Shown: positions 3,001 to 26,725 of the stretch, piece by piece
How the letters are laid out: the number at the start of each line of letters is the position of its first letter
Numbering within the stretch: the first letter of the stretch is position 1
Source of the DNA: Fragilariopsis cylindrus CCMP1102
Lineage: Eukaryota > Bacillariophyta > Bacillariophyceae > Bacillariales > Bacillariaceae
Assembly (NCBI GenBank): GCA_900095095.1
Contig: FMBT01000149.1
Location: 1-64,000, forward strand
Direction: 5' to 3'
DNA length: 64,000 nt
Notes under the pieces: model-generated
What the model was told of the DNA's origin: nothing
Database searches by the model: none
Seen by the model: only the letters and a program-made list of their open reading frames with translations
Position numbers and translations under genes: made by a program

Positions 3001-5872
3001 CACCGAGCATAGACCATAAAATTGTGAACAAGCTCTGGATACCGCCGATACTACCGATAACTTGCTGAGAACCCTCAATACATACGGCTTGAACGCATTG
3101 ATCATTAAGTAAAACATGAGCTCCAGAGTGTAGCTCCATAAGGAAATTATTTTCTCTCCGACGAGGATTCCATGTAATGTAAAGTCGCGAAATGAATGAA
3201 GATTTCGACAGTGGGTTGCTTCCTCCGTCTATTACTTCTTTATCCTCCCCTAGATCAGCTACATCGCGTGTCACATTGTTGTCCCTATTTACTACGCATT
3301 GACCAACAGCTAGATGCTCCAAGTCGTCCCATTGAATATTTCTGCCAGGTACTCTTGATGATTCGACTTCATTTCACTCCGTGTGTGTCCTGTTTTTCCG
3401 ACACTCTTCGTCTCTGAAGTCATTTCAAAGATAGCTTTGAATGTCGCGTCAGAGATGTTGTCGTGAAAAATATAAATAGAGCCTACTTGACCATCAAAGT
3501 TTTCTCCGAATGTTAATGAAAGGGTCTTCTTAATCGACGAATCGTACCGAATTTGTGGAAATTTCATAGCTTCAGTTAACATTGTTTTTCCGTCAATTAG
3601 GACTGTCAGTTGCTCTCTCGATGACATGAAAATACGCCTTTGAGTCGAGATCGTGTATGTCGAACAGCAACATGATACCATACTCGTGCGTGCAATGGAC
3701 AATTATTGACCTTTATGCATGTTTGAACTCTGTGATTCTCAATCACTTTAATAGCGAGTACAGCAGCCGAATTACACTGCTTCGTTTTTTTGGGCAAGGG
3801 AATAGTATGAATTTCGAAACCACTCCCACTTTCATTCAGAGCTTGAAGTAATACGCAATTATTCGATTCTTCCGACGAAAATCCTCGGCACGGAAATTGA
3901 AGGCCGTTCCAAAATCATTGCGGAATGGCCATGATGTTTGATCAAGATTTATAGTTCTTTTTATCCCAGGACCCGAAATAAATGAGAAAAAATTCATAGG
4001 GTTGGTCCTTCCCAATACAAGGAAAGATGATCTAGAAGCAGTTGAGGAGGCTGAAACAGAAAGTGCTCTTACCATCGCTAGTCTCACCTTCAAGGACACT
4101 GTAACGTCGCAAGCTAATGAAATCATTTGTCGGAGCTCATCAACAGCTACACCTCCTGCACAAAGTATTCCTGTCAGTCGCGTTATTGGTGAAAGTAAAT
4201 ATTCGTACTTATGATGATGTTGTTGTTTCTGATGATGTTGATTGCAACAAAGTATCGATTTTAATGTAAGAAGCATGGATTGGACTGAATTCTTCCATAC
4301 CATTCGAAGCCGAACGATAGAGTACATCAAGTTTGCATTAGTGGTAGCATCGTCGGTTGTGCCAACGAATATTTTTTCTGATGATCCTCGTCTAGGTAAT
4401 TTTTTTCTTCTTTTTTGGTTTGAAACTGATGATGGCAAAAATGCCTCCTCCTTCCACGGACTAGAGGCAAGAATAACGTAATTATACTGAAAGTCTGTAT
4501 ATCCTTCAAGCAAACGAAGAAAATACGGAATATACTCGAGGCAAAAATTTGTGGCAACTTTTGCAAATAAGAAGGAGTCGTCAGTAACTTGATTAAAACT
4601 GTGGAAGGTCTTTGGATGACAACTCCCATCGGTAATACCACATCTGTTAGTAAATCATTATCGTCATCGTCGTCGCCATTGTTGTGTTGATTTCGTCTAC
4701 GTTTCTCCGACTCAACAACTTCTTTGACAGAATTAATTTCCAGAGGTGGACGACAAAAGTCACCAAATAATGCATGTAGGAGATGGATATCTTGTTCGTC
4801 CTTCTCATACTTGGAAATTTCGGTATGTTCATGGTTAGTTCTGTTGTTCCGAATGCTGATTGTATCCATTCCACATTCTGCTAGAAGCTCCGATAATTCG
4901 AAAGTGCATAATTTGTCGTCAGGGGGTTGGGGCTGTACATTTTTGTCAGCGCTATCGCTATCGCCATCGCCTTCATGTTTACCCTCTCCATTGTAATTTT
5001 CCTCTTCTTGCCGTCGTTGCTCATATAAGTTTTCCGTATCATTATCCTCTTTCTCTGTGGGAGCGAGAGTGCGCATATTACGAATAGACGACATGTTGGT
5101 ATGGAAAATTCTAAGGAAGAATTGCCTTCTAGTATTTCGTCTTCTCCATTATCATCGGCAGTACATTTATCTCCGCTGTTATTGTCAACAGCGCAGTTAT
5201 TGCTAGTACCATCAATATTGTTACTGTTACTGTCATCATCAGCTCCGCCAACTAATACATCGACATTAATAATCCCCAGTGACGACATCCTACGCTTAGC
5301 CATCATTCCCATTCTTCCGCTTGGTTTTAGTTGCAACCGACGACACTGATCATTATCATCATTATCATCAAGCGACGAGCGTCGAGGCTCAGCCTCTATG
5401 CTCGATTCTTCCATGTACAAATTGACAAACTCGCCAGACAATCCTGCGACGTGTCCCGTTACATGTCCAACCGTCGCGGAATTCATATCACTTTCTTGTC
5501 CTAGCTGACCTCCTTGTTGTAATAGCATTGTATCTTCTTCTTCTTCGTCGTCGTCGTCGAAATCGTCAGTAGATTTCGAAAGGTCACTATCAGAACGCTT
5601 CATAGCAATGGCATCTCGTATAGCTGCTGCGGATCCGAGACGAATGCATCTAGCAACGTCGCTGTCGTCATCGTCGACTGCTAATACTCCTGTTACCCCT
5701 GTCTCTTCTTCTTTCTTCTTCTCTTCTTCTTCTTCTTCCGCTACTGAAAATCAGTAATGGCAGCGGTAGCGCTATCGATACTGGCATCGACATCGACATC
5801 GACATTATTGGAGGTAGTCGCGGTTGACTCGTTATTGCTAGTTATCGATAGTTGTTCCATTGTGCCCTCCAT
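1..5872 (-). CDS. BEACH-family (neurobeachin/LYST-like) giant protein, N-terminal part; runs off the left edge
   Basis: BEACH proteins are scaffolds for vesicle traffic and lysosome-related organelles. The read part (about 1,700 residues) has an acidic, low-complexity start, then a concanavalin-A-like fold: WPF near 3930, WYHVAVRHTRSRLKG near 3680, VLIDGK and the VGSIYIFHD strand near 3480. Armadillo-like helices typical of the family follow (LVPDLLNILSCF, GGIDIVEHLLF). The PH, BEACH and WD40 parts would lie left of base 1. Clear introns are 994-1073, 2147-2234 and 2431-2524. The start is uncertain: the ATG ending at 5872 fits if one base is added near 5747. About seven frame changes (near 5747, 5105, 4595, 3878, 3629, 3372, 540) are each cured by one extra base, five of them in runs of exactly four T on the coding strand. 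The intact ConA pattern across these points argues for base-calling errors rather than a pseudogene. Confidence 0.82.
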
Positions 5873-6421
5873 CGTCCTCCATTTTCGACCCTACGCAATG
5901 ACCAAAATTTCTTCCTCGTCCAAAGATCGATCGATAGAAATGTAAGGGGGGGGGGTCAGGGAGTAGATTGTTAACTTCTTATCTAGTAGTGATAACAGAA
6001 GTATGATAGAAAACTTCACTTCATTCACTTGATGATAATAACGTATCTTCATTATTCATTATTCAGCATTTGTACCAGGTAGTAGCATGATCTTGATTTT
6101 TTTCATTCAAAGAATGGCTTTATTGTTTGACTCGAATGAGTCGAGTCTCGTTTTATTTTTCGATTTTATGTACATCAGTACGTACGTGATTAAATCAATC
6201 CCATGGTTGACGCATTGACTGAATCATACCTTTTTTAAACTTTTCTGTTGGTTTCCTGTTCATTTTTTTGGATCTTCTGTCTCTGACATCAAATTTCCTT
6301 ATTGACAGTCGAACAGTCCTCGTCAACATCGTGCGTAGTGAGGATGAGGATAAAAACAGTTACTTGTACTCGTATAAACCTTGAAGTAAGCATAACTTAC
6401 AAAAGTTAGACAACTATTAAA

Positions 6422-8264
6422 ATGATCTCCGTCAGATTCATTGCCCTTGTTTTAATATTGGCGTACTCCTCTCATCTGACGTTCTCATTGAGTCAAATAC
6501 AAGACCGTCGTAAGGCAATTCAACAAGCAGGCGTTGTATTCGGAGCATCTACCGGTCTCATAGCAATACCAACTCGTTCATCGGTGGCTCTTGCTGAAAG
6601 CGTTATCGTCACTAATAAAATAAACCCCATCGCTACCTTATCCGACGGATCTAAATTCCCCTGGCATCGTTTGGACTTCAGTGAGTTGTGCCTGTAATAA
6701 TATACTACATCTATACTAGACTAGACTAGACTTGGCTCGGCTCGGCTCGGCTCGAATCTAACGGTATCTTTTCCAAATCTTGTCGTACTCACCTTTCCCT
6801 TTATTTTCCTCTATATTCACCTCGATATCCACTTTGATATATATTTCAATTCGTTTATTGCAATTTTCTCCACCACCATTATCATCATAAAAAATTATGA
6901 TACACAGAGTTTATGATGACAATACAGCCTATAAACTAACCCTAACAGCGTTAGAAGTGGGATACCGTAATTTTTTTGCTAGTGTCCTCGCTGGAAATCA
7001 AAGGGGATTCGCAAAAGCTATCAAAGAATCCAATATACCAAGAGAAGATTTGTAAGTTGAATATTTTGGACTGTTATTTTTTTTGAACCTCGAGCTTTAG
7101 ATAACGTGGGCTCTACTTGCCAGGATGATATTTTATCCACATTATTAATCTGAAAGATTGGTTTCACTTTTACTACAGGTATATATGTGGTTCGGTCGTT
7201 TCGAATCGTGCAAGTGGTTTTGATGATAGCAAAAGTGCAACTACAAAAGGTGTGTGTATGCGTGTGCGTATTGTGTATTGTGTGTGTGCGTGTTCTGAAG
7301 AGTTTGTTTCACGAATGACAATACTCTTGTTGTCGAAATATAACCTGAATATTTTTGTTTATGTTTTCGTTTGCTCGACGATCATTGGTTAACAAAAAGG
7401 ATGGATGAGGAATATGGAAGCATTTGGCGTCGGCGGAATAGATTACTTAGATCAAATCATGTTAGACTATCCTGGACCAAGTTGTGACTCGATCCGAGGG
7501 CAATGGAGTTCTTTCGAGGAGATGCATGCACAGAAACTAACAAAGAGTATATCAGTTTCGAATTTTAATCTAGATCAGTTAGACTGTGTCTTAAAGACAG
7601 CGACCGTCAAACCAGTCGTCAATCAACTTCCGTATAATGTAGCCTACCATCCTGGCAGTGTGACCGAAAATAGTAAGCGAGGGCTTTTGGTTCAAGCCTG
7701 GGCACCACTTGGTAAGTTTGTAATTACGTTGTATTACACATCTGTATCAATGATTATATTATTTTTACATATACTCATTTGCTTGCTTGTGCTTACATTC
7801 GTTGTACCGTATTATACATCTAACGGTATTTATATTTGATTTTTGTTTCCTCGTGCTAATACTGTATACCACCAAACTTTATTAATATGACTATCATAGG
7901 TGGGTCTACCGGACGCTTTGATTCAAGAATTAAAGATGCATGTTCGCTAATTGGGAAACAATACAACAAGTCGTACGCACAGGTAGGTTTGGAATGTTAC
8001 TGTGCGCTCTTTTCTCATTTTATCTTGTATTGTATTCCATTGTATTTGGTTTCTACTAACAACGTGCAATGACTGTAAAAAAAATCAAATCCAAATTCGA
8101 CAATATTAATATTTACTTCACAGGTTGCACTTCGTTGGATAATTCAGAACGGTGGATCATTTACAACGCAGTCAAAGAATAAAGACCATTTTTCTGAGGA
8201 TCTCAATGTGTTTGATTTTGAGTTGACTCAGAATGAGATGCAAACATTGAATTCTCTCGCATAA
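6422..8264 (+). CDS. Aldo/keto-reductase-fold protein with secretory plus twin-arginine-like presequence; catalytic residues apparently lost
   Basis: Six exons join cleanly in frame: 6422-6680, 6910-7051, 7179-7249, 7400-7711, 7900-7982 and 8124-8264, giving 335 residues. The fold is recognisable from ALEVGYRN, NIPREDL, IDYLDQIMLDYPGP, ISVSNFNLDQL, NQLPYNVAYHP and VALRWIIQNGG, in family order. Residues 1-25 form a signal peptide. DRRKAIQQAG, a hydrophobic stretch and VALA then resemble a thylakoid-lumen Tat signal, so plastid-lumen targeting is inferred. By motif alignment the catalytic tetrad looks absent: the HIDTA..Y region reads NFFASVL, the TTKL lysine region reads GSVV, and LIHWP reads MLDYP. 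Hence reductase activity is doubtful. Splice sites are canonical and no frame problem occurs here, unlike in several neighbours. Confidence 0.85.
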
Positions 8265-9846: not shown

Positions 9847-11214
9847 CTTCTGATTGAATTGATTGATTCTGAAAAAGAGGTTTTTCTTTTTTGAATGACA
9901 GTATGCAATGCGAAACTCCTTGCTGATGACTGAATACTGGATAATTCTACAGTCGTTTTCTTCTTCTTCTGCTTCTGCTTCTTCTTCTTTTCCTTCTCTA
10001 ACAATAGGAAAATAATCGTTGATAGAAGGATGGTTACGGTACAATACTCCTGTTGCAAGAAAGATGTTAATGGCAAGGTGCTCGACAAATAATAAGAATA
10101 CTTCGACAAAAATTGAAAAGCACAAAAGCAAGCACGATCGAATTTCGGATTTTCACCGCACTGTAAAAATGTCACGAAAAAGTCATTTAAACTATTTTTA
10201 GTTTTTAAGCACACTGAAGTCATTATTTTTAAAAAAAGATTGATACTAATAATGGGTCTTGCATACAGTGTGGTTTCTAATGTATTTTTTAATAATGTGA
10301 CAAAATGTATGGTTTTATATGTCCACTTGCTGGATTTTGATGCTAATCAAATGCAAATACCGGCTACACCCCCCATACATATGCACTTCTTCAGCTGTCC
10401 ATTTCATGCATGTAGGAGCTTTATTGCATTTATAATTGAAGTTCACCCTTTGTGCACTTTAGTCCTGTCCTTGTATGAAAGCGCCTGCTTTGTTCATTGT
10501 ATGAAGGTGGATTTTGTCACTATGTATTGTCAAATTGAATCACACGGGGCAAGGACAACTACTAGGAATTCCATAGTACAGTGACTGTGGATCTATCTGA
10601 GTGAGATAATGAAAAAAGGCAACACAGTAAACTTTAAGATCATGCTAGATACCAGAAGAATTTCTTGATCTTGACAAATTTGAACGTATGCTTTTCAGTT
10701 CTGATTCATTATACTAATAATAATGCACATTGATTGCGTTGCATGTACAGTTTAGTTTGAATTTAAGATTCAAATTATTAATATTATAGAGAAGAGCTAT
10801 ATTTTTGATGATCTCTGAAGACAATTCAAGTGCGAAAAAACTTATGTAAGCACAATGATAGGAGATTGTTGAACTTATATTATCATAACACACATCATTG
10901 TAACCACTACAGTAAAACAATATGCAATATACGTACGATTACCAGAAAAAAAAGCTTTGACATCATTTTGGGCATTTAATATTAATATAAACAACATGGA
11001 TTTATAAATACAAGGTAAACTTGATTATTCATTATTCGCCTTTCCGAAGAACCCAGAGAAGATAGCGAGAGACGAATAGTATATATCATTATCATATATA
11101 TTAGATTGTATGGAAACTTCATCCATTAATATAGAAAAGAGACGTTCAGTCGTATCTTGTCGATTACAGTAGAATTTCGTTCAATTCTTCTTCTCTTACT
11201 ATACACAAACATTT
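9847..11214. other. Intergenic, no supported gene
   Basis: About 1.4 kb between the scramblase start and the 3' end of the next gene. Short open frames occur (for example 10240-10584 +) but their residue composition is not protein-like and no family was recognised. No RNA gene was seen. A promoter for the scramblase gene would lie at the left end. Confidence 0.5.
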
Positions 11215-13987: not shown

Positions 13988-15511
13988 TCATAGTAGAACA
14001 TAATCATCCTCATCACTAATTTCATCCTGTGGATCATCGAATACACCATCATCATCCAGATCATGCAGCATCATATCATTCGCCGAATCTGAAGACATGT
14101 AGTTCGGAAGCTTATCAAGGAATGAAACAAGTTTTGGTGCAGAAGAGTTGGGTTTGTACGTGTTAAGGCGTCTTCCAAGTCTAGAAAATCCTTTCTATTC
14201 GGCAGTAGAAACCAAGAGCAATAGATGGATCCATCCGATTCAGGTCCAATAATTCGGATATGTCGTATGTACCGACGCAAGATATTCATCAGTAAGATCA
14301 ATACACTGTTCTTTCTCATTGTCTATTTTTGTTCCTGGACCTTTTCTTTCATGTTTGGTGCAGATTGTACTGTATGGGGATCAAGTCCCAAATCTTTGAA
14401 CCATCTGCGTACGCCCCGTAGAACCAACGAGCTCCACGAGGACGTCCACCAAGTATTCCTACCGATTGCGGTAAACTAAATATATGAGCGACACTTTGTA
14501 CATATTCTTCATTGAATACATCAAGTCCCAATCGGAGTGGTATTAAAAGAAGTAGACTCGTATCCCATTCTAGATCTTTTAGCTCCAATTCTTCCAATTC
14601 GGGAACAACTTGATCTAATGGGTGTGATGGTTCTACCCCTCCTCCTGTTGTTGTGTTGTTGTTGTCGTTCAAATTGTTGCTGCTCCTTTTCTTGGCCCCA
14701 TCTTTAGTCATCAGTTCGTAAATCGTTTCTTATAGAGTGTTCCTTCCGATGATACGTGTACACGAAAGATATTTGTTTGTCGTTGCTGGTGTAATGCGAC
14801 TAAGTCTCTCATTACATAACATGCCGTGCCTGGCCCGTACCATTCACCTTCGATGTCCATGTGGCATAATATTGTAACGATAGAAGAATAATAATGGCAC
14901 GAATAAAAGGGATATAAACTGGTGTAAGAAAGAGAAAGAATAAAGAAAAAAAGATGATACATGCCAAACAAACGAGCAAAAAAGGGACATACCTGGGAGA
15001 ACTTCGTACTTTGCCAAACCAGCAGCGCACATATTGTGCAATGAGTAGATCGATTGGCTCGTACTTGGAAAATCTGCAAACCATGTCAACAATACTTTTA
15101 CAAAGTTATCCTCTCGAGCTTTTGTGACTGAGGTTTCTGCTTTCCAATGCCTCGACTTGAAATGTATTCTTAGAGCATGAGTAAGCATCATTTGGGCCGA
15201 CCGCAACATACACCCCCATCCGGCATCAGATGTTATACAATACGGTTTGATTTCAGGAAAGTCGTATCGATACGTCCACCAAAATAACGAAGCCTCATAT
15301 TCCTTTCTTTCGTAGTAGTCATGAACAGGATGACAACGTCTACCGAGCATGTAAAGGTATGGTATCTGTTTTCTTCATTGTTCTTTGTCAAAACGTTGGT
15401 ATAGATAGAATCAACATCATCTTCATCGTCTTCATTAGATTCGTCATAGAAGTATTCATAATCTTCTTTCTTCCTCTCTAGCTCTTGCTCCTGTTTCACT
15501 TCCATATTCAA
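13988..15511 (-). CDS. ATG4: ATG4 autophagy cysteine protease, with C-terminal LIR-like motif
   Basis: ATG4 cleaves ATG8 to expose its C-terminal Gly and later deconjugates it from lipid. Seen in order: an acidic N-terminus; LGRRCHPVHDYY; FWWTYRYDFP; the catalytic Cys in DAGWGCMLRSAQMML; GEWYGPGTACYVM; LLLIPLRLGLDVFNEEY; LPQSVGILGGRPRGARWFYG; GLDPHTVQ, which supplies the catalytic Asp and His; and MDPSIALGFYC. One intron is clear (about 15000-14855, between VLPG and GEWYG). The last residues, DEDDYVLL, are acidic followed by Y-x-x-L, like the LIR at the end of human ATG4B. About seven frame changes (near 15354, 14733, 14378 and several in 14330-14160) each need one added base. All family motifs survive, so assembly error is more likely than decay. 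Confidence 0.88.
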
Positions 15512-16084
15512 TATGTTTGTCGGTCGTCTGTCGTCGTCGGAAAGAACAATTATGAATTACAACATACAACAGCATAACAGCATACTGGCTATTTCTAAGA
15601 ATTTCTCAACAGAATTTGCTAGTTGCTGCATGATGCCGCCGCTATTTGATATTTGATATTGTTGACACGACATTATTATTTAACAGCTCCTATCTTTTGA
15701 GTCCAAACAAGACTAACTTTTGAGACTGAAATAGCTCTTATTTATTATAATGTATAAAACACGCACATTCTGCCCGTCACAACTAGTCTGCAATAACTAT
15801 ATTAGGACTGGCAAGGCTAAATCGAGTCCAGCATCCAGTCAGCCGTGAACAACATACAATTTTTGTTGTGATGCAGCAATGATGCGGGTGGAACTGTAGT
15901 ATATGGAATGTTCTACTAGCGTAGTGTCGAAGTAGTAGAAAATAAATGCAAATGCAACCTTAAAAACGTAAATAATATCATATTCATTCTACTAGCAGTA
16001 CTTGAATTCTGTTGATTATTTCACCTAGGAAAATCTTTGTCTCTTGAGAGGTCGTTCCTGTTCTTCTTCCGTTTCGCTTTTATC
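15512..16084. other. Intergenic, no supported gene
   Basis: About 570 bases upstream of ATG4 and downstream of the PARN-like gene, both on the minus strand. AT-rich; it presumably holds the ATG4 promoter and the PARN 3' end. No open frame or structured element was recognised. Confidence 0.45.
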
Positions 16085-18124
16085 TCAGCAAAAAATCCCC
16101 ATAGATTCCAGATATTTTTTGAGGTTTTTCGACGGTCGGACGAAGTAGTGTGATCGTTTCTTTTTCCCAAATTTACTACTCTTCAAAGCGTCAAGCAATA
16201 GTTTACCATGCTCTTTAAAGCGTTCGTCGTCATCATTGAAACTAACTATTTGGCGCCAACCAAGAATGTAGTATCGTCTACCCAAATAACATCAAAATTT
16301 ACTCGTTGGTTACGAGAATCGAAAAGTCCAGAAAGGGAGTTTATAATGTCCCGTGATGACACTGATGGATCATATTAGCTATACGGAAAGTTGATTCATG
16401 AGACATACCCCTTCCAAGTGGATCTGACACTGGAGATTCAAATCAATCGTGTACGGCGATAAATGAAAGTATAGCTTGTTCCGCCCGTATAAGTACCTTG
16501 GAAATGTAAATTCATCGATGCAATAATCCCATAATTGAAATTTGGAGCTTGCGTCCACAGGTGGGATTTTTCTTTGGTTTTGAATAGTATAAGAAAGTTC
16601 ACAGAACGCAACTCCCGTCATGTACGCATCATACGCGGCATCATGAGCCTGTTCATCTTGTTGGACTTGTCCGTTGAGACAAAAGGCGCGATGCTTCCAA
16701 TGCGGATGCTCAGCAACAGCCTGTTCATAAACATCCTCAAGGCGAGTCCTACGAGATGTGTTGTCCCTCAAACAATAATCCGAAGCTAAAATTTTCGTAT
16801 CATATACCACTGGGAAATGAGAATGAATAAGACGTTTGCAATCATCCCAATCGCTTGGAAGTTTAGGGGAGTGGAAATGTGTCATAAGAAATAGGAGATC
16901 CATTAACCCATTGTGCACGACAAGAGGAATCTTTCTATTCGAAATGCACTTCCCTGGAGAGAATTCCATCAATGCGTCATTCGCATTAGGTGCCAAGATT
17001 ACATGTTCGGCTATGTTTGCAATTGGTTCGCCGCTACATGCTTTTGACAATGCCAAAAAGATACGTTGTGCTCCAATTTTTGATTCAATCAACTTTTTAT
17101 ATCCCTCAACCAACAACCGTTGTGTCCGTCTTTCCCGTTCTTCATCCGTAAGTCGCCATACACGGATTTGCTCACTCTGAGTTTCGAGGACTAGATAAGG
17201 ATAATCTCGTTCAATACTTTCATACAAAGAACGTCGTAAAAAGGAATTGCATCGTGGAAGTAAAAAACTAACACCCTCCGCCCCTTGTGCCCCAACAATG
17301 GGTGTATCCAACCATTCTCGCAGACTAGATGCGACTCTAGCATGAAACTCCTTATCTTCGGCTTTAGTTAAGACAACCTTACGACGTTTATAGGCTGGTG
17401 ATGATGTTGCAGTAGTGGGAGTTGAACCCATTTGCTTCTGACGTTTTAAAAATTTCTCTGCTAGTTTGGCGGCAGTATCTTTTGTGCAGAATGGGATTCC
17501 TTCTCGTGCCCATAGGTTAAGGTCCATGTTATTTTCTAGCAGAAAATGAATTGACGACGGGTTCAATGTTATTTCTCGAGTAATATTAGGATCAGCTGGT
17601 GGAAATAGTGTGAATTTATACCTTCGCACATGAAAGGAAGCTGCATCAGACGTATCTGTTTCCTGTGATGATTTATGTTCAAATAAACAAATTCCCAATT
17701 GAATAATAGCATAACGCTCCGGAACAAGCTTCGTAGTAGAATATCGATCCGCAGGTGACTCGTCTTTGCAGATCTTCTTGACGTCTCCTGGTGGTAAGGA
17801 TATCCCAGTCATTTCCTCATCGATCGCGATCCAGGAAGCGTTGGGAAGGTTGCGTATGAAGTCATTGCTTTGTTCCAAGAAATCAGACCTGTAGAGAAAT
17901 TTGCAATAAAATATCCATTAGTGTATCTGACGTCAACAAATAAAGGGCAAAATATCGAACATATTCGTGGTGCTAAAATTTACGTACTGCGTGGAATTCA
18001 CCATGATTGATTCTCCACCGTTCTGAGCCATATCTGTTGGGCGCTGAGGGCTACTGCTACTATCAGTATTGTTATTAGCTCTAAATAACTGGTTTTGATG
18101 ATGTGCCATGGTTAATTCCTCCAT
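16085..18124 (-). CDS. PARN/CAF1-type poly(A)-specific 3' exoribonuclease
   Basis: Deadenylase of the DEDD superfamily, which removes poly(A) tails or trims small RNA 3' ends. Exon 1 is 18124-17988 (starting at MEELTM or at the later MAHHQ), then a canonical intron to 17889, then a long exon. DEDD residues: WIAIDEEMTGI (D and E of motif I), VVHNGLMDLLFL (motif II Asp), HDAAYDAYMTG (motif III His and Asp). The R3H-like insert region includes LLVEGYKKLIESK. After HLEG three short frame changes (near 16405, 16360, 16250) each need one base; corrected, the tail reads STFRIAN, YDPSVSSRDIINSLSGLF, VIWVDDTTFLVGAK and ERFKEHGKLLLDAL. That pattern fits the C-terminal RRM-like domain of PARN. Confidence 0.88.
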
Positions 18125-18486: not shown

Positions 18487-19161
18487 ATGGTTGATAAAGG
18501 AAACAAAGATTCCGTTATAATTTCTACCGAAGTATTTGCTTTGATGGTAGCGCATGCTGCCAGTCATCCAACTACGGCAATCCACGGCGTGTTGATCGGC
18601 AATCGGAATAGTAGCACGAATAAGGTTGATGTTACGGATGCTTTCCCGATCTGTCATGAAAATCCAACAAAGCCACTTGTAGAGACTGCATTAGCATTAG
18701 TCCAATCAAATTTGGAGGGACAACAACAAAAAGATACTGATAAAAAAAGTTGTATTGTCGGATGGTATACAGCACCTGAATTATTATACGAAAAAAAACC
18801 AGGTCCAGTTGCGTTAAGGATTGTTGCTGGCTTGGCGGCGGCGTCATCGGAGGATAATGATTCTTCTTCTTTCTCCTCCTCGGGTGAGCCGATATTACTC
18901 GTTTTGAACAATGAAGTGATAGTTACTCTACTCGCGGAGCAAGAGAAAGTAGTAGCATCGAAAGTAGTTCAGGCTTACGGAAAAGATTTTGGTTTGCAAT
19001 GGATGGAACCTCTCGATCTGACTGTATCAAACGAATCCGGAGCTGTCAAGGCCGTATCTGCCATTTTTAATGAAAAAGTCAATGTTAACGATCTTGTTGA
19101 TCATTGGGATGAAGGTGCTAGTTCTGAATGGACCTCAGCCTCTAGAATTTCCATTTGCTAA
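18487..19161 (+). CDS. EMC8: ER membrane protein complex subunit 8/9
   Basis: A single intronless frame of 224 residues, the usual EMC8/9 length. This catalytically inactive MPN-fold subunit sits on the cytosolic face of the EMC, the insertase for tail-anchored and multipass membrane proteins. Recognisable are the start VIISTEVFALMVAHAASHP, then AIHGVLIG, CIVGWYTAPEL, PILLVLNN, and the C-terminal LVDHWDEGASSEWT. The JAMM zinc ligands are absent, as expected for EMC8/9. One gene seems to serve for both vertebrate paralogues. It is divergent from the PARN-like gene, with about 360 bases between the starts that must hold both promoters. A low-complexity Ser insert (SSEDNDSSSFSSSG) lies mid-protein. 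Confidence 0.88.
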   Translation: MVDKGNKDSVIISTEVFALMVAHAASHPTTAIHGVLIGNRNSSTNKVDVTDAFPICHENPTKPLVETALALVQSNLEGQQQKDTDKKSCIVGWYTAPELLYEKKPGPVALRIVAGLAAASSEDNDSSSFSSSGEPILLVLNNEVIVTLLAEQEKVVASKVVQAYGKDFGLQWMEPLDLTVSNESGAVKAVSAIFNEKVNVNDLVDHWDEGASSEWTSASRISIC

Positions 19162-19305: not shown

Positions 19306-22020
19306 CTATGATCCACTATCATTATTATTATTTTCTCTGTTTTCATTTTCATTATTACTGTGAGATCTAGGTTTTATTACTCTCAATTGTACCGCAACAT
19401 CTTCTACCACTACCTCTTCTGTTCGGAATGCTTTCATAGCCCGATCCACAGAATCGTCGTTCGTAAAACGAAGGATTCCAAATCCTCGTTCGTTGTGTGC
19501 AACGGCGGCTATTGTAACATCCCCGAATACGCTGAATGCTTTACGGATGTCATTTTCTGTTGCTTTCTTTCTCATTCCCGATATCACTATTGTTGTGACC
19601 GGTATGTCCACTGCAAGTTGCAAACCAAGCAATCCTGCACATTCGTGGATAGTCCGCGAGGCGTCATTAGGACCAAGGACACCATGTCGAACACTTGCGG
19701 TCATCTTATTTAATGTTTCCTGCATAATTTCGCGTCTATGTATTATAAGCAAAAGAACATGGTGTCAGAGGTGGTCCGGTCCGGCTTACATTTACTACAA
19801 TAAGAGTTGAAAAGGATCAATTATATCCCTCGCGGCACACAGCACGTACACACTTCACGCATACACAGACAAAATACTGAATGTACTGTACTTACTTTTC
19901 TCTAGCCGTTGCTTTGTCGTTGCGCTTTAGCCAATCCATAATGATTCCCAATGCACTTGCTTCAATTTCTGGACCGGTTACATTATCTTTACCACCCCAC
20001 AACACGTCGGAAACAGTTGTAATATCGTCTTCTTCTATTAAGGCCGTGCAACGGCTTGACTCATCATCCCATCACATCCCTCTAAATTTCCTTCTACATC
20101 CGCCTCATTTTTTCTAAATTTTGATCTTTATATTGATCAAATTCGTCGGCAAATATCTGCGTCGTGTCTGCTTCATCTTTTGAATGCCCGCCCATAGAAT
20201 TTCCTCTAGATAGGAGCGATTGATTTGATACTAATGATCCATTTGGTGAAACGACAACACCGTCCAACCCAGATGGACCATCCAAATGCTTCGAAAATGC
20301 GGATCCATATGCTTTTGTTTCGCCCGAAGACTTACTACCCCCTGCATTGTCATATCTTGCTTTTGTTGCTGCAGCGGCGGCAGCACCACCACCCCATCCT
20401 CCTTCTGTGTGTTCATCACTACTGCGATGTCCTTCATGCCTACTACTTTTATTAACAGCATCAGCTTGGAGTTCAATCTCACGAGTTTGTCGTCGCTTTT
20501 TGCAGTAAATGAGTACACCGATTGCAACTATCGATAGTGCAATTATAATAGAAACCCAATAATAGCAGTATTATTACTTTTTTCTTCTCAGTGACACTGC
20601 ATCACTGTATCGGATTCCAGGCCAGCATCCTGGCAAGAGAAGTGGGTATCATGGATTCAAGACTGGGAATAAGCGTAGAGGGAGAGGCAGTTATAGTTGG
20701 TTAACGGTCGGGGTTGCACTCGGAAAAGGCGACATTGAAGGTGCCGGTGTCGATACAACTATTCTTTTTGCTTTGCCCACATTTGTGATATTCAAATTCA
20801 GTACATTCATTTGTTTCAGAATCGTATCGAGGTTTAGATTGGTCCAATTCTGGAACATACGTGGATAATCAGATACATTATAGTATTTGCTATCATACTT
20901 CATAGTAAAGTCCACATCGATCACAACATCAGAGGGAACGGGGGCAGGAGCAGATGTAGCCTCTTCTGCTGCTGCTACTTGTAAGTAGCGTGCCATTTCC
21001 TCGTAGTTTTTGCGGTAGGGTTCCTTTTGAACTGACGAAATTATCATTATCTTGTTCTAGAAGTAAGGATGTATTTCTATTTGTATTCGATCGCAATTGC
21101 AACTGCATCGCCTGCTTCGTCGTCGTTCTCCTGATTCGCCGCCGCCGTCGTCTTCGCTCTCTTCGCGCTTGAAACTGCTGGTTAAAAATAGTACAATTCG
21201 TATCGACTTTATCCGCCTCCCCCGTCGGTGCAAATTGGAAAGTGTGACCAGCATAAATCGTTTGAAATACTGTAACTTCATAGTCACTAAATATTCTTCC
21301 ATTCCCGACCGTAAACGATTGACGAAACTTGTTTTCTTTTACACTCGGATTTTCTAATGTTGCTTGGTCGGTTGGACTCGTTGTCGGAGATACCGATGGT
21401 GGCATAGATACCGTTGGATATTGGGTCGGTCGGATACTTGGAATACCTGATGGCTTCATTGTTGTACTAGGAGATACTGTAGTTACATTATTGTCCGTTT
21501 CCGCAATAGATGTTACTGGTTCTTCAAGTATTGACTGCGATGGTGCAATCGTAGAGTTTTGAGCTTGCACGATCGACGGTAATCCTACTACAATAAGGAA
21601 AAACATCAGTATACCAAACGAAGGCCGTAATGATATTCTCGGACGTTTATTGAAATTGGAATTGGAATTGGAATTAGAATTGCACTTATTATACTTATTA
21701 TTTGTATTTATTGATGTACATGATCTTCTCAGATATCTCCGTTTCATTTTCACATTTTGGGGATTTTCTGACCCACCATTTTCTTTTTTACGATGGGAAA
21801 AAATTGAACAATCTGTTCTCCAATTCCCAACGCAAACGGAAGAAAACTCGTCCATCAACATTGCAACGAGATAATAATGATGCGAAGATGATGGTGCGGA
21901 TTCAATATGATGTAGTGAAGACCTTAAATTACAACAGATATTAGATTCTTCCGGTTCATCTGTACTGAAATTCATGAATGTTTTTTGTCTCTTTATTGTG
22001 ATCGTTAGGATAGCTTGCAA
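19306..22020 (-). CDS. Secreted/PT-rich ectodomain, single membrane helix and cytosolic RRM-like domain, apparently one protein
   Basis: Order on the minus strand: a hydrophobic signal/anchor (FGILMFFLIVVGLPSIVQA); a PT/PS-rich stretch with repeats like PSIRPTQYPTVSMPPS; an ectodomain with N-glycosylation sequons (NYT/NWT/NIT types) and a run of Arg; a membrane helix (SIIIALSIVAIGVLIYC) ended by KKRR; a charged cytosolic tail; then, after an intron near 19900-19735, an RRM with RNP2-like TTIVISGM and RNP1-like RGFGILRF. About six frame changes interrupt the reading (near 21040, 20700, 20600, 20555, 20104, 20065). Most need one added base in a homopolymer; the one near 21040 needs one removed. 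No gap separates the tail from the RRM part, which supports one gene. The start may be 22020 or 21747. The alternative is two adjacent genes. Confidence 0.6.
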
Positions 22021-25072: not shown

Positions 25073-26339
25073 GATTTTATATTATTTATTTGTTTGGACC
25101 ACACCGCCCCTCTAGCATCTCTCTATCTCTCTCTGTTCTATTAATTCTTTTGACTTGAAACAAAAAAGGTTTAATAGAATAAAATATAGACGATGTGTAG
25201 CAAGTAAGTGTTCGTCTACAGTATTAGGATGGTAGCAGTAATTGAAGAAACCTCGTCAAATCTCCCGTCAAGCAATCAATAGATAGAGGTGAGACAAGGT
25301 TATTATGTTGTTCCGTCTCGAAATAATGTTCTGGAACTGGAACTAGCTAACACGGCGTCCAATTATGATTGGATCGCCTACAGTACTTCGTGGTCGCATA
25401 TTTTGTCCGCCGCTAACTCACCGGAACGATGAGAATGGTGCCATGTCGTGGAAGAATTAAAATCTATAAGTAAAATAAGTCTTTTCGGAAAAATTAATTC
25501 GTGAGTCAACCATTCTTTATCTGGGGGAACAATTCTTATATCTCTGCGAGAATAAAATATTTCCCCTTTTACAATGAAAATCCTCTTTATATAATATTAA
25601 TCCTACTAGTAAAAGAGAAATGGTCAGCATTGAATAGAAAATCGAAAATCCAATTAAAATCGTGTTGAAAATAATTTCGGATCTATGGTTAAAAAAGGGC
25701 CACTTGCACTGCTCCTCAACAATGAATCATAGACAGATGACATATGAAAGATCATTAAACCCTATTTACAATTCATAAAATTGATAAATATACTACTATC
25801 AACTGACCATGGTTACTGGCGCGTTTGGCTCAATGCGGTTCTTCATGTTACAAAAAACAAATACGCGATACCTTGCGGCAAGGAAAATTCTTTTACATTA
25901 TTAAGAATTGAAATGGAAAATTATCACATCATCATCATAATGGGAATGGAATTGTATTGAATTGAACCTCCATGGATATCGATCTATTCAACAAAAGCTT
26001 ATTAGACGAAATATAGATATCTCTACTCTTATTCCTCGAATACTTGTGACAGTTATTACTCTGAGTAATGGGCTAACTGTATTCAAATTCAGATATATCA
26101 TTTTGGAAGCAAATGGGTCTGCAAAAGTTCTGAAAGTATGCAATTTGTATTGTAGGACACCTTGAAAGTTGAACTCAGAGGAATGGAGTATTCAGAAGAT
26201 TCAAGGAAAGCTAGTGCTCATGTCTGCCAATTCATTTGAGGATTATTTTGTAGGTGTAAGATGTATCTATTTGGTGGTGGTAATGCCTGATAGATCAAAT
26301 TCAGTAGCAAAGATGAACCCCCAACAACCCTCAAGTTGA

Positions 26340-26383
26340 AACAACTGTAACAAGTTACCTCAAAGTAACTTGTTACAGTTGTT
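26340..26383. repeat. Perfect inverted repeat, 19-bp arms, 6-base loop
   Basis: The arm AACAACTGTAACAAGTTAC at 26340-26358 is exactly complementary to 26365-26383 across the loop CTCAAA. As RNA it would form a strong hairpin. It could be the core of a small foldback (MITE-like) element, a transcription stop, or a small-RNA precursor; the sequence alone does not decide. Confidence 0.85.
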
Positions 26384-26725
26384 GTTGGTTGTGGTTCTAA
26401 AGAAAGAATAGACTATTATTGCTATTCAAACCATAGTAATATATAGTAATAGTGTATTTTTGTTTTAGCAGAGTTCCAGAGTTCAAAAATATTAACCATT
26501 ATGTTATATTTAGTAATGGCTACTATGTATGATGTAGTATCATGGTATTCTTCGTAAACTTTGACCATTGTTTTGCTGTCCAACAGTTAGATGTAACGTG
26601 GAAGGATTCACACCTATATATCCATCAATTTCAAAGTATCTTGTTCGTCCAACAACAGCAGCAGCAAAAAGAAGAAAAGAAAGACACATATTTGTGTCAG
26701 CACAAAAAATAAGATAATATCTAAT

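What the first reader, a model, noticed from the sequence alone, without database searches (positions are those of the whole stretch)
19306..22020. Membrane protein with an extracellular PT-rich region and a cytosolic RRM
If the frames belong to one gene, a single protein spans signal peptide, glycosylated ectodomain, one helix (SIIIALSIVAIGVLIYC + KKRR stop-transfer) and an RNA-recognition motif with RNP1-like RGFGILRF. Pairing a surface domain with an RNA-binding tail is unusual; it could couple an outside signal to RNA handling at the membrane. The two parts abut without a gap, and single-base corrections in homopolymers fuse them.
Basis: partly seen in the sequence, partly recalled or inferred. 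Interest (0 to 1): 0.72.

Follow-up and report, generated by a model that had tools for sequence, protein, structure and literature searches.

The report
Diatom membrane protein with RNA-binding-type tail
A diatom gene appears to make one membrane-spanning protein whose outer part resembles a small family of secreted-type proteins and whose inner tail ends in an RNA-recognition fold, an unusual pairing that could hold RNA or a partner protein at a membrane.

Summary
In the window the frames are broken, but the same genome holds a second copy (contig C66, 99.4% identical over 4.3 kb). There the transmembrane helix, basic stop-transfer and cytosolic tail lie in one open frame of 232 codons, which a canonical 160-nt GTAAGT...CATAG intron joins in phase to the RRM exon. 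Helix plus RRM in one protein is therefore well supported, and the window's breaks there look like assembly errors. A candidate short intron joins the ectodomain's halves in phase in both copies. The join from PT-rich stalk to helix is open in both, so the full-length protein is likely, not proved. The RRM is real (Pfam RRM_1, E 5e-8) and, with its tail, single-copy, but keeps only one of three usual RNA-stacking aromatics, so RNA binding is uncertain. The ectodomain has relatives at four other loci; the tail search matched none of them. The closest precedent is MAN1, a membrane protein whose RRM fold binds proteins. New variant of a known kind. Relatives in other diatoms could not be tested.

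The parts
21562..21618 (-). Signal-peptide-like hydrophobic segment FGILMFFLIVVGLPSIVQA, after a basic N-terminal stretch; possible starts at 21975 (MNFST) or 21747 (MKRRYL)
   Evidence: Translation; KD-19 mean 2.26 in the C66 copy. No signal-peptide predictor was available.
21360..21490 (-). S/T/P-rich region (SPSTTMKPSGIPSIRPTQYPTVSMPPSVSPTTSPTDQ); limits approximate
   Evidence: Translation, frame 0
21175..21327 (-). Ectodomain, first half (FRQSFTVGNGRIF...TNCTIFNQQ)
   Evidence: Paralog at C645, 55-57% amino-acid identity
20961..21036 (-). Candidate 76-nt intron (GTCAGT...AG; 80 nt in C66) that joins the two ectodomain halves in phase in both haplotigs
   Evidence: Enumeration of GT-AG introns (best donor of 7 solutions in the window and 10 in C66), coordinates; not tested by transcripts
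20751..20921 (-). Ectodomain, second half (IDVDFTMKYDSKYYNVSDYPRMFQNWTN...GKAKRIVVSTPAPS)
   Evidence: Relatives at C645 (61%), C195 (39%), C89 (40%), C307 (35%)
20600..20750 (-). PT/S-rich stalk; frame join to the helix unresolved in both copies
20502..20552 (-). Transmembrane helix SIIIALSIVAIGVLIYC
   Evidence: KD-19 mean 3.26 in C66; a ~150-bp block with this helix also at C595 and C598, 88-89% DNA identity
20490..20501 (-). Stop-transfer KKRR (predicts a cytosolic C-terminus)
   Evidence: Translation; positive-inside rule, recalled
19896..20501 (-). Cytosolic tail exon: a Gly/Ala/Ser-rich linker, then an acidic, probably helical part (QIFADEFDQYKDQNLEKM...AREK)
   Evidence: One open frame in the C66 copy; codon score positive in this sense frame only, in both halves
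19736..19895 (-). 160-nt intron, GTAAGT donor and CATAG acceptor; if retained, an in-frame TAA stop lies at the donor
19306..19735 (-). Last exon: helical segment and RRM, stop at 19306-19308
19372..19590 (-). RRM (RNP2-like IVISGM, RNP1-like RGFGILRF)
   Evidence: Pfam RRM_1 5.2e-8 and RRM_3 7.9e-6; PDB best match TDP-43, 2.4e-10 over two domains, about 0.002 for the better single domain; predicted strand-helix order fits an RRM but at low confidence, mean pLDDT 47

Best explanation
This is one diatom gene for a single-pass type I membrane protein. Its lumenal or outer part is a small domain shared with short, N-terminally hydrophobic proteins of the same genome, set on S/T/P-rich, probably glycosylated, linkers. 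A helix and KKRR fix it in the membrane, and a roughly 345-residue cytosolic tail ends in an RRM. The most likely mode of action is that the tail works as a membrane tether: the RRM and the helical segment before it hold an RNA-protein particle or a protein partner at the membrane in which the ectodomain places the protein. Shown: helix, tail and RRM in one spliceable reading frame (genomic sequence only). Likely: ectodomain in the same protein. Inferred: topology, glycosylation, tethering, and whether the ligand is RNA or protein.
For: The C66 copy has helix, KKRR and tail in one 232-codon open frame that runs to a GTAAGT donor, and splicing continues it in phase into the RRM exon. Codon usage trained on the 11 other ATG-started ORFs of 300 aa or more in the window (not checked to be genes) scores +0.20 bits per codon in that frame and negative in the two other sense frames, with +0.17 in the half next to the helix and +0.26 in the half past the junction. 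Of 7 base substitutions between the copies in this exon, 5 are synonymous and 2 exchange Ser and Gly in a Gly-rich linker. RRM_1 is above Pfam's cut-off. In C66 no Met lies between the in-frame stop and the helix, so the helix exon needs an upstream exon, and the stalk's open frame ends within about 20 nt of it. KKRR on the C-terminal side predicts a cytosolic tail (recalled rule).
Against: The stalk-to-helix join is out of frame in both copies. Ectodomain relatives at C645, C195 and C307 end soon after the domain, so the ectodomain could be a gene of its own. The N-terminal ORF and second ectodomain half score near zero for codon use (-0.02 and +0.01; an antisense frame of the N-terminal ORF reaches -0.002). 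No transcripts were available. The RRM lacks two of three canonical aromatics, which weakens RNA binding. No relatives outside this genome were found, but those scans find close relatives only and the collections are of viruses, bacteria and archaea.
Confidence: 0.55

Rival explanations
1. Two genes. An ectodomain gene ends near 20690, like its short paralogs, and a separate soluble RRM protein starts at a Met inside the tail. The helix exon is a relic or belongs to the first gene.
For: Ectodomain paralogs at C645, C195 and C307 are short and have no such tail. The stalk-to-helix frame is not closed in either copy. In-frame Met codons occur in the tail.
Against: In C66 the helix and tail are one open frame with coding-like codon use on both sides. 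No intergenic space is seen between the parts. A soluble RRM protein starting at the first Met of the tail would leave about 130 stop-free codons unexplained.
Confidence: 0.2
2. The protein is as described, but the RRM is a protein-binding module, in the manner of the MAN1 U2AF homology motif, and recruits a signalling partner to a membrane rather than RNA. (This overlaps with the best explanation, which leaves the ligand open.)
For: RNP2 position 2 is V and RNP1 position 5 is I, both non-aromatic. MAN1, a membrane protein with a C-terminal RRM fold, binds SMADs with it (passages).
Against: RNP1 RGFGILRF otherwise fits the consensus (recalled). The R-x-F motif that marks U2AF homology motifs (recalled) is not seen after helix 2 (RTE there). 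TDP-43 RRM1, aligned, also has a non-aromatic residue at that RNP2 position and is a nucleic-acid binder (recalled).
Confidence: 0.35
3. A decaying gene: the frameshifts are real and the window's allele is a pseudogene.
For: Several frame breaks in the window copy; one stretch (stalk to helix) is out of frame in the second copy too, and C66 has a break of its own between second ectodomain half and stalk.
Against: The second copy is open from helix to donor. Single-base losses in the window copy also cluster at 5-7 kb (22 losses), 10 kb (13) and elsewhere, as unpolished long-read stretches would give. Nearby ORFs for a CAF1-type nuclease and a UPF0172 protein are intact.
Confidence: 0.07

Closest known systems
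MAN1 / LEMD3 (inner nuclear membrane protein with C-terminal RRM fold)
   Same: Membrane protein with an RRM-fold domain at its C-terminus on the nucleoplasmic side (passages of PMC12841731 and PMC4150126)
   Different: MAN1 has a LEM domain, two membrane segments and a winged helix and, by recall, no signal peptide or PT-rich ectodomain; its RRM is classed as a U2AF homology motif
Silicalemma-associated proteins (SAPs) of diatoms
   Same: Signal peptide, hydroxyl-residue-rich lumenal part, one helix, conserved cytoplasmic segment; the cytoplasmic part of TpSAP3 is cleaved off (abstract and passages of PMC5647440, 12 of 21 places shown)
   Different: SAPs are described with a shorter cytoplasmic part and a 28-residue conserved segment; no RRM is mentioned in the passages seen; the lumenal region is Ser-rich and carries RXL sites
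ER-membrane mRNA receptors (AEG-1/MTDH, RRBP1, KTN1, LRRC59)
   Same: ER-membrane proteins proposed to hold mRNA or ribosome complexes at a membrane (passages of PMC8230838, 12 of 64 places shown)
   Different: The passages seen describe no RRM; RRBP1 uses a Lys-rich region and basic repeats; [quoted passage not shown]
TDP-43 RRM1 (PDB 7py2, 4bs2)
   Same: Best sequence match of the RRM among solved structures; also a non-aromatic RNP2 position
   Different: By recall a soluble nuclear protein; it has two RRMs (two matched stretches)

Membership tests
RRM (Pfam PF00076) | Profile match above curated cut-off | tested here: met
   33.1 bits against 20.7
RRM (Pfam PF00076) | Strand-helix-strand-strand-helix-strand order | tested here: inconclusive
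   Order E51-55 H64-74 E77-84 E89-94 H97-106 E113-121 fits, but mean pLDDT is 47, single sequence
Canonical RNA-binding RRM | Aromatics at RNP2 position 2, RNP1 positions 3 and 5 (consensus recalled) | tested here: not met
   V, F, I in IVISGM and RGFGILRF: 1 of 3 kept
U2AF homology motif (MAN1-like) | R-x-F motif between helix 2 and the last strand (definition recalled) | tested here: not met
   KAFRTEEVVVED: no R-x-F there
MAN1/LEM proteins | LEM domain | tested here: not met
   No LEM family among the Pfam matches (E up to 1 or 5) of the N-terminal ORF, the second ectodomain half and the tail
Diatom SAP family | 28-residue conserved cytoplasmic segment just after the helix | not testable with these tools
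   The paper's alignment is in a figure, and figures are not held
Single-pass type I membrane protein | Signal peptide, one helix, basic stop-transfer on the C-terminal side, all in one frame | tested here: inconclusive
   Elements present; helix to C-terminus in one spliceable frame; stalk-to-helix join open

The most novel reading that the evidence does not exclude
A surface or vesicle-lumen receptor that acts directly on RNA: the ectodomain senses a wall, silica or outside cue, and the RRM tail either holds mRNAs at that membrane for local translation or is cut loose to reach the cell interior. Splicing of one 160-nt intron, whose retention stops translation at its donor, would switch the same receptor between forms with and without the RRM.
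Probability: 0.12. Interest if true: 0.78.

Novelty: new variant of a known kind. Interest (0 to 1): 0.47.

Why it matters
If transcripts confirm it, this would be a membrane protein that joins an outward-facing domain and an RRM in one chain, in a group where how cells link wall-building membranes to the cytoplasm is open. It would give a single tagged gene with which to ask whether mRNAs or partner proteins are held at a diatom membrane. It also shows that frame breaks met in a raw reading of this assembly can be checked against the other haplotig in the same assembly.

Tried and rejected
Viral contigs: the tail plus RRM found no relative. The ectodomain gave one hit, L052, on a contig with an ORF that reads like a bacterial-type DNA polymerase (by eye, so probably a phage); the match rests mainly on a short FTVGNGRI run next to a stop codon; rejected as chance. 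Bacterial and archaeal genomes: none. PDB: no match up to E 1 to the tail before the RRM or to the first ectodomain half.

Weak Pfam names for tail, RRM exon or ectodomain (Herpes_UL51, SCIMP, Gloverin, Bcl-2_3, DUF6241, DUF4523, RRM_7, YxzE) all fall below their curated cut-offs and were set aside.

Survey of other RRM genes in this genome: 121 RRM matches, a lower bound since only 150 of 163 candidates were scored; I grouped them by hand into about 59 loci counting alleles once, this gene included. In 18 of 20 the longest frame over the RRM has no 19-residue stretch with KD mean of 1.9 or more. The two others are a U1-70K-like protein, where the stretch lies before the likely start, and a protein with a signal-peptide-like N-terminus (names by eye). 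The scan looks at one frame only and would have missed this gene too, whose helix lies in the exon before, so it does not show uniqueness.

Short introns as the cause of every frame break: works for the ectodomain halves, fails for stalk to helix in the window.

Literature: searches for diatom with RRM and membrane terms (5 listed; 33: none; 45: 4 listed; 63: 10 of 36 listed) and for membrane-anchored RRM proteins (11 listed; 34: 2 listed) showed, by titles and abstract starts, no paper on such a protein. I opened none of those except through, which come. Absence is for those searches only, in an open-licence library.

Full report
Setting. The window is contig C291 of a 67.9-Mb, 818-contig assembly. 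Silicon-transporter genes (Pfam PF03842, best 757 bits, 27 matches) fit a diatom. Many matches come in pairs on different contigs with equal or nearly equal scores, so the assembly seems to hold both haplotypes in part (inference).

Is it there? On the minus strand, from 22.0 kb down to 19.3 kb, the translations show a basic N-terminus, a hydrophobic signal-like segment, an S/T/P-rich region, an ectodomain in two frames, a second PT-rich stretch, the helix with KKRR, a tail in shifting frames, and a final exon with an RRM. Pfam RRM_1 matches the last exon at E 5.2e-8. The best PDB relatives are TDP-43 chains (E 2.4e-10, summed over two RRMs; about 0.002 for the better one alone). A single-sequence AlphaFold model gives the RRM order of strands and helices but at mean pLDDT 47, so it is weak support.

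One gene? In this genome the RRM and the tail are matched only at two places, C291 and C66, apart from the helix block at C595 and C598. The two copies are 99.4% identical over 4.3 kb, with 11 mismatches and 16 gap positions. Around them, window 1-26517 aligns to C66 in two blocks in the same order, with about 0.9 kb more in C66 between the blocks; I kept only blocks of 1 kb or more near the expected offset and did not look beyond. In C66 the helix, KKRR and tail are a single open frame of 232 codons. It ends at GAGAAAA|GTAAGT; splicing to CATAG|ACGCG removes 160 nt and continues in phase as ...ATAREK-REIMQETLNKM... into the RRM. In 2000 first-order Markov sequences of 2750 nt made from this region, none had a stop-free run of 232 codons. 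A codon-usage score trained on 11 other long ORFs of the window is positive only in this sense frame (+0.20; other sense frames -0.06 and -0.23; best antisense +0.03), and separately in the helix half (+0.17; best antisense +0.06) and the half beyond the junction (+0.26; best antisense +0.01). The RRM exon scores +0.07 in frame and negative in the other five. For the N-terminal ORF and the second ectodomain half the reading frame used here is the best of the three sense frames but near zero (-0.02 and +0.01), and an antisense frame of the N-terminal ORF is as good (-0.002), so for those the evidence is homology, not codon use. Seven substitutions separate the copies in the tail exon: five synonymous, two Ser/Gly exchanges in the linker.

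What breaks the window copy? In the kilobase 20000-21000 the two copies differ by eight single-base indels, seven of them losses in the window; the two kilobases on either side have none or one each. Such losses also cluster at 5-7 kb (22), 10 kb (13), 14 kb (6) and 16 kb (6) of the window. I read them as residual sequencing errors of C291; this is inference, since reads were not available.

The ectodomain side. A candidate intron GTCAGT...AG of 76 nt in the window and 80 nt in C66 joins the two ectodomain halves in phase in both copies; other, weaker GT-AG pairs also do (7 solutions in the window, 10 in C66). In the window the second half runs on into the stalk; C66 has one base fewer there, and the C645 paralog agrees with the window's reading. 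From stalk to helix neither copy is in frame; GT-AG introns solve it in C66 only with poor donors (5 solutions) and not at all in the window. So the ectodomain's place in the same protein rests on order, spacing, the lack of a Met before the helix in C66, and the type of architecture.

Relatives. The ectodomain has relatives at C645 (55-61%), C195, C89 and C307 (35-40%). Those I read, C645, C195 and C307, are short ORFs with an N-terminal hydrophobic segment that end soon after the domain; C89 was not read. None of the four was matched by the tail search. A block of about 150 bp with the helix and some 20 residues after it recurs at C595 and C598, 88-89% identical in DNA, about 1 kb downstream of a frame that reads like a protein kinase (by eye). 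The gene thus looks like a composite: a member of a secreted-type domain family, a helix module found elsewhere, and a single-copy tail with RRM. How it was put together is inference.

Function. KKRR after the helix predicts a cytosolic tail (positive-inside rule, recalled). The RRM keeps RNP1 except for an Ile at position 5 and has Val at RNP2 position 2, so one of three usual aromatics remains (consensus recalled; letters). TDP-43 RRM1 also has a non-aromatic residue at the RNP2 position (alignment). So RNA binding is possible but not shown. A MAN1-like protein-binding role is a near-equal contender, though the R-x-F motif of that class is absent. I favour a membrane tether for an RNA-protein particle or partner, at moderate confidence. 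Retaining the 160-nt intron would stop the protein at the donor codon TAA and remove the RRM, a simple possible switch that transcripts could test at once.

Precedents, from passages only: MAN1 (PMC12841731, PMC4150126), diatom SAPs with a cleaved cytoplasmic part (PMC5647440), ER mRNA receptors (PMC8230838). I saw none with this architecture in the listings of the searches made. I have an unverified impression, from recall only, that the tail-plus-RRM block occurs in other diatoms; no tool here could test it, because no collection of eukaryote genomes was on hand.

Verdict. New variant of a known kind; interest 0.47.

Noticed in passing
window 18487-19161 (+): Intact ORF matching UPF0172 (E 2e-22) and JAB/MPN (1.5e-7), convergent with the finding; by recall UPF0172 holds the ER membrane complex subunits EMC8/9.
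   Followed up: no
window 16379-17878 (-): Intact CAF1-family ribonuclease ORF (E 5.3e-69), on the same strand as the finding and beyond the UPF0172 ORF.
   Followed up: no
L009 5168-5257, L010 4591-4740 (C595, C598): Helix plus juxtamembrane block of the window gene repeated at 88-89% DNA identity, about 1 kb downstream of a protein-kinase-like frame (by eye); the shared block starts within a few bases of an AG, as if an exon had been shuffled.
   Followed up: partly
L011 4430-4876 (-), L053 154-852 (+), L054 (- strand): Small family of proteins with an N-terminal hydrophobic segment and a shared domain (..YPxxFQNxTN..N..L....K..R); the C645 member has no Pfam match above cut-off.
   Followed up: partly
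window 5000-7000, 10000-11000, 15000-16000, 26000-26517: Clusters of single-base losses (5-7 kb, 10 kb) or of substitutions (15 kb: 19; 26 kb: 20) between C291 and its haplotig C66; my alignment, limited to blocks near one offset, ends at 26517.
   Followed up: no
L050 (C88:522900-528200): RRM protein with a signal-peptide-like N-terminus followed by CSCQGFLSL, which looks like a plastid-targeted RNA-binding protein (by eye).
   Followed up: no
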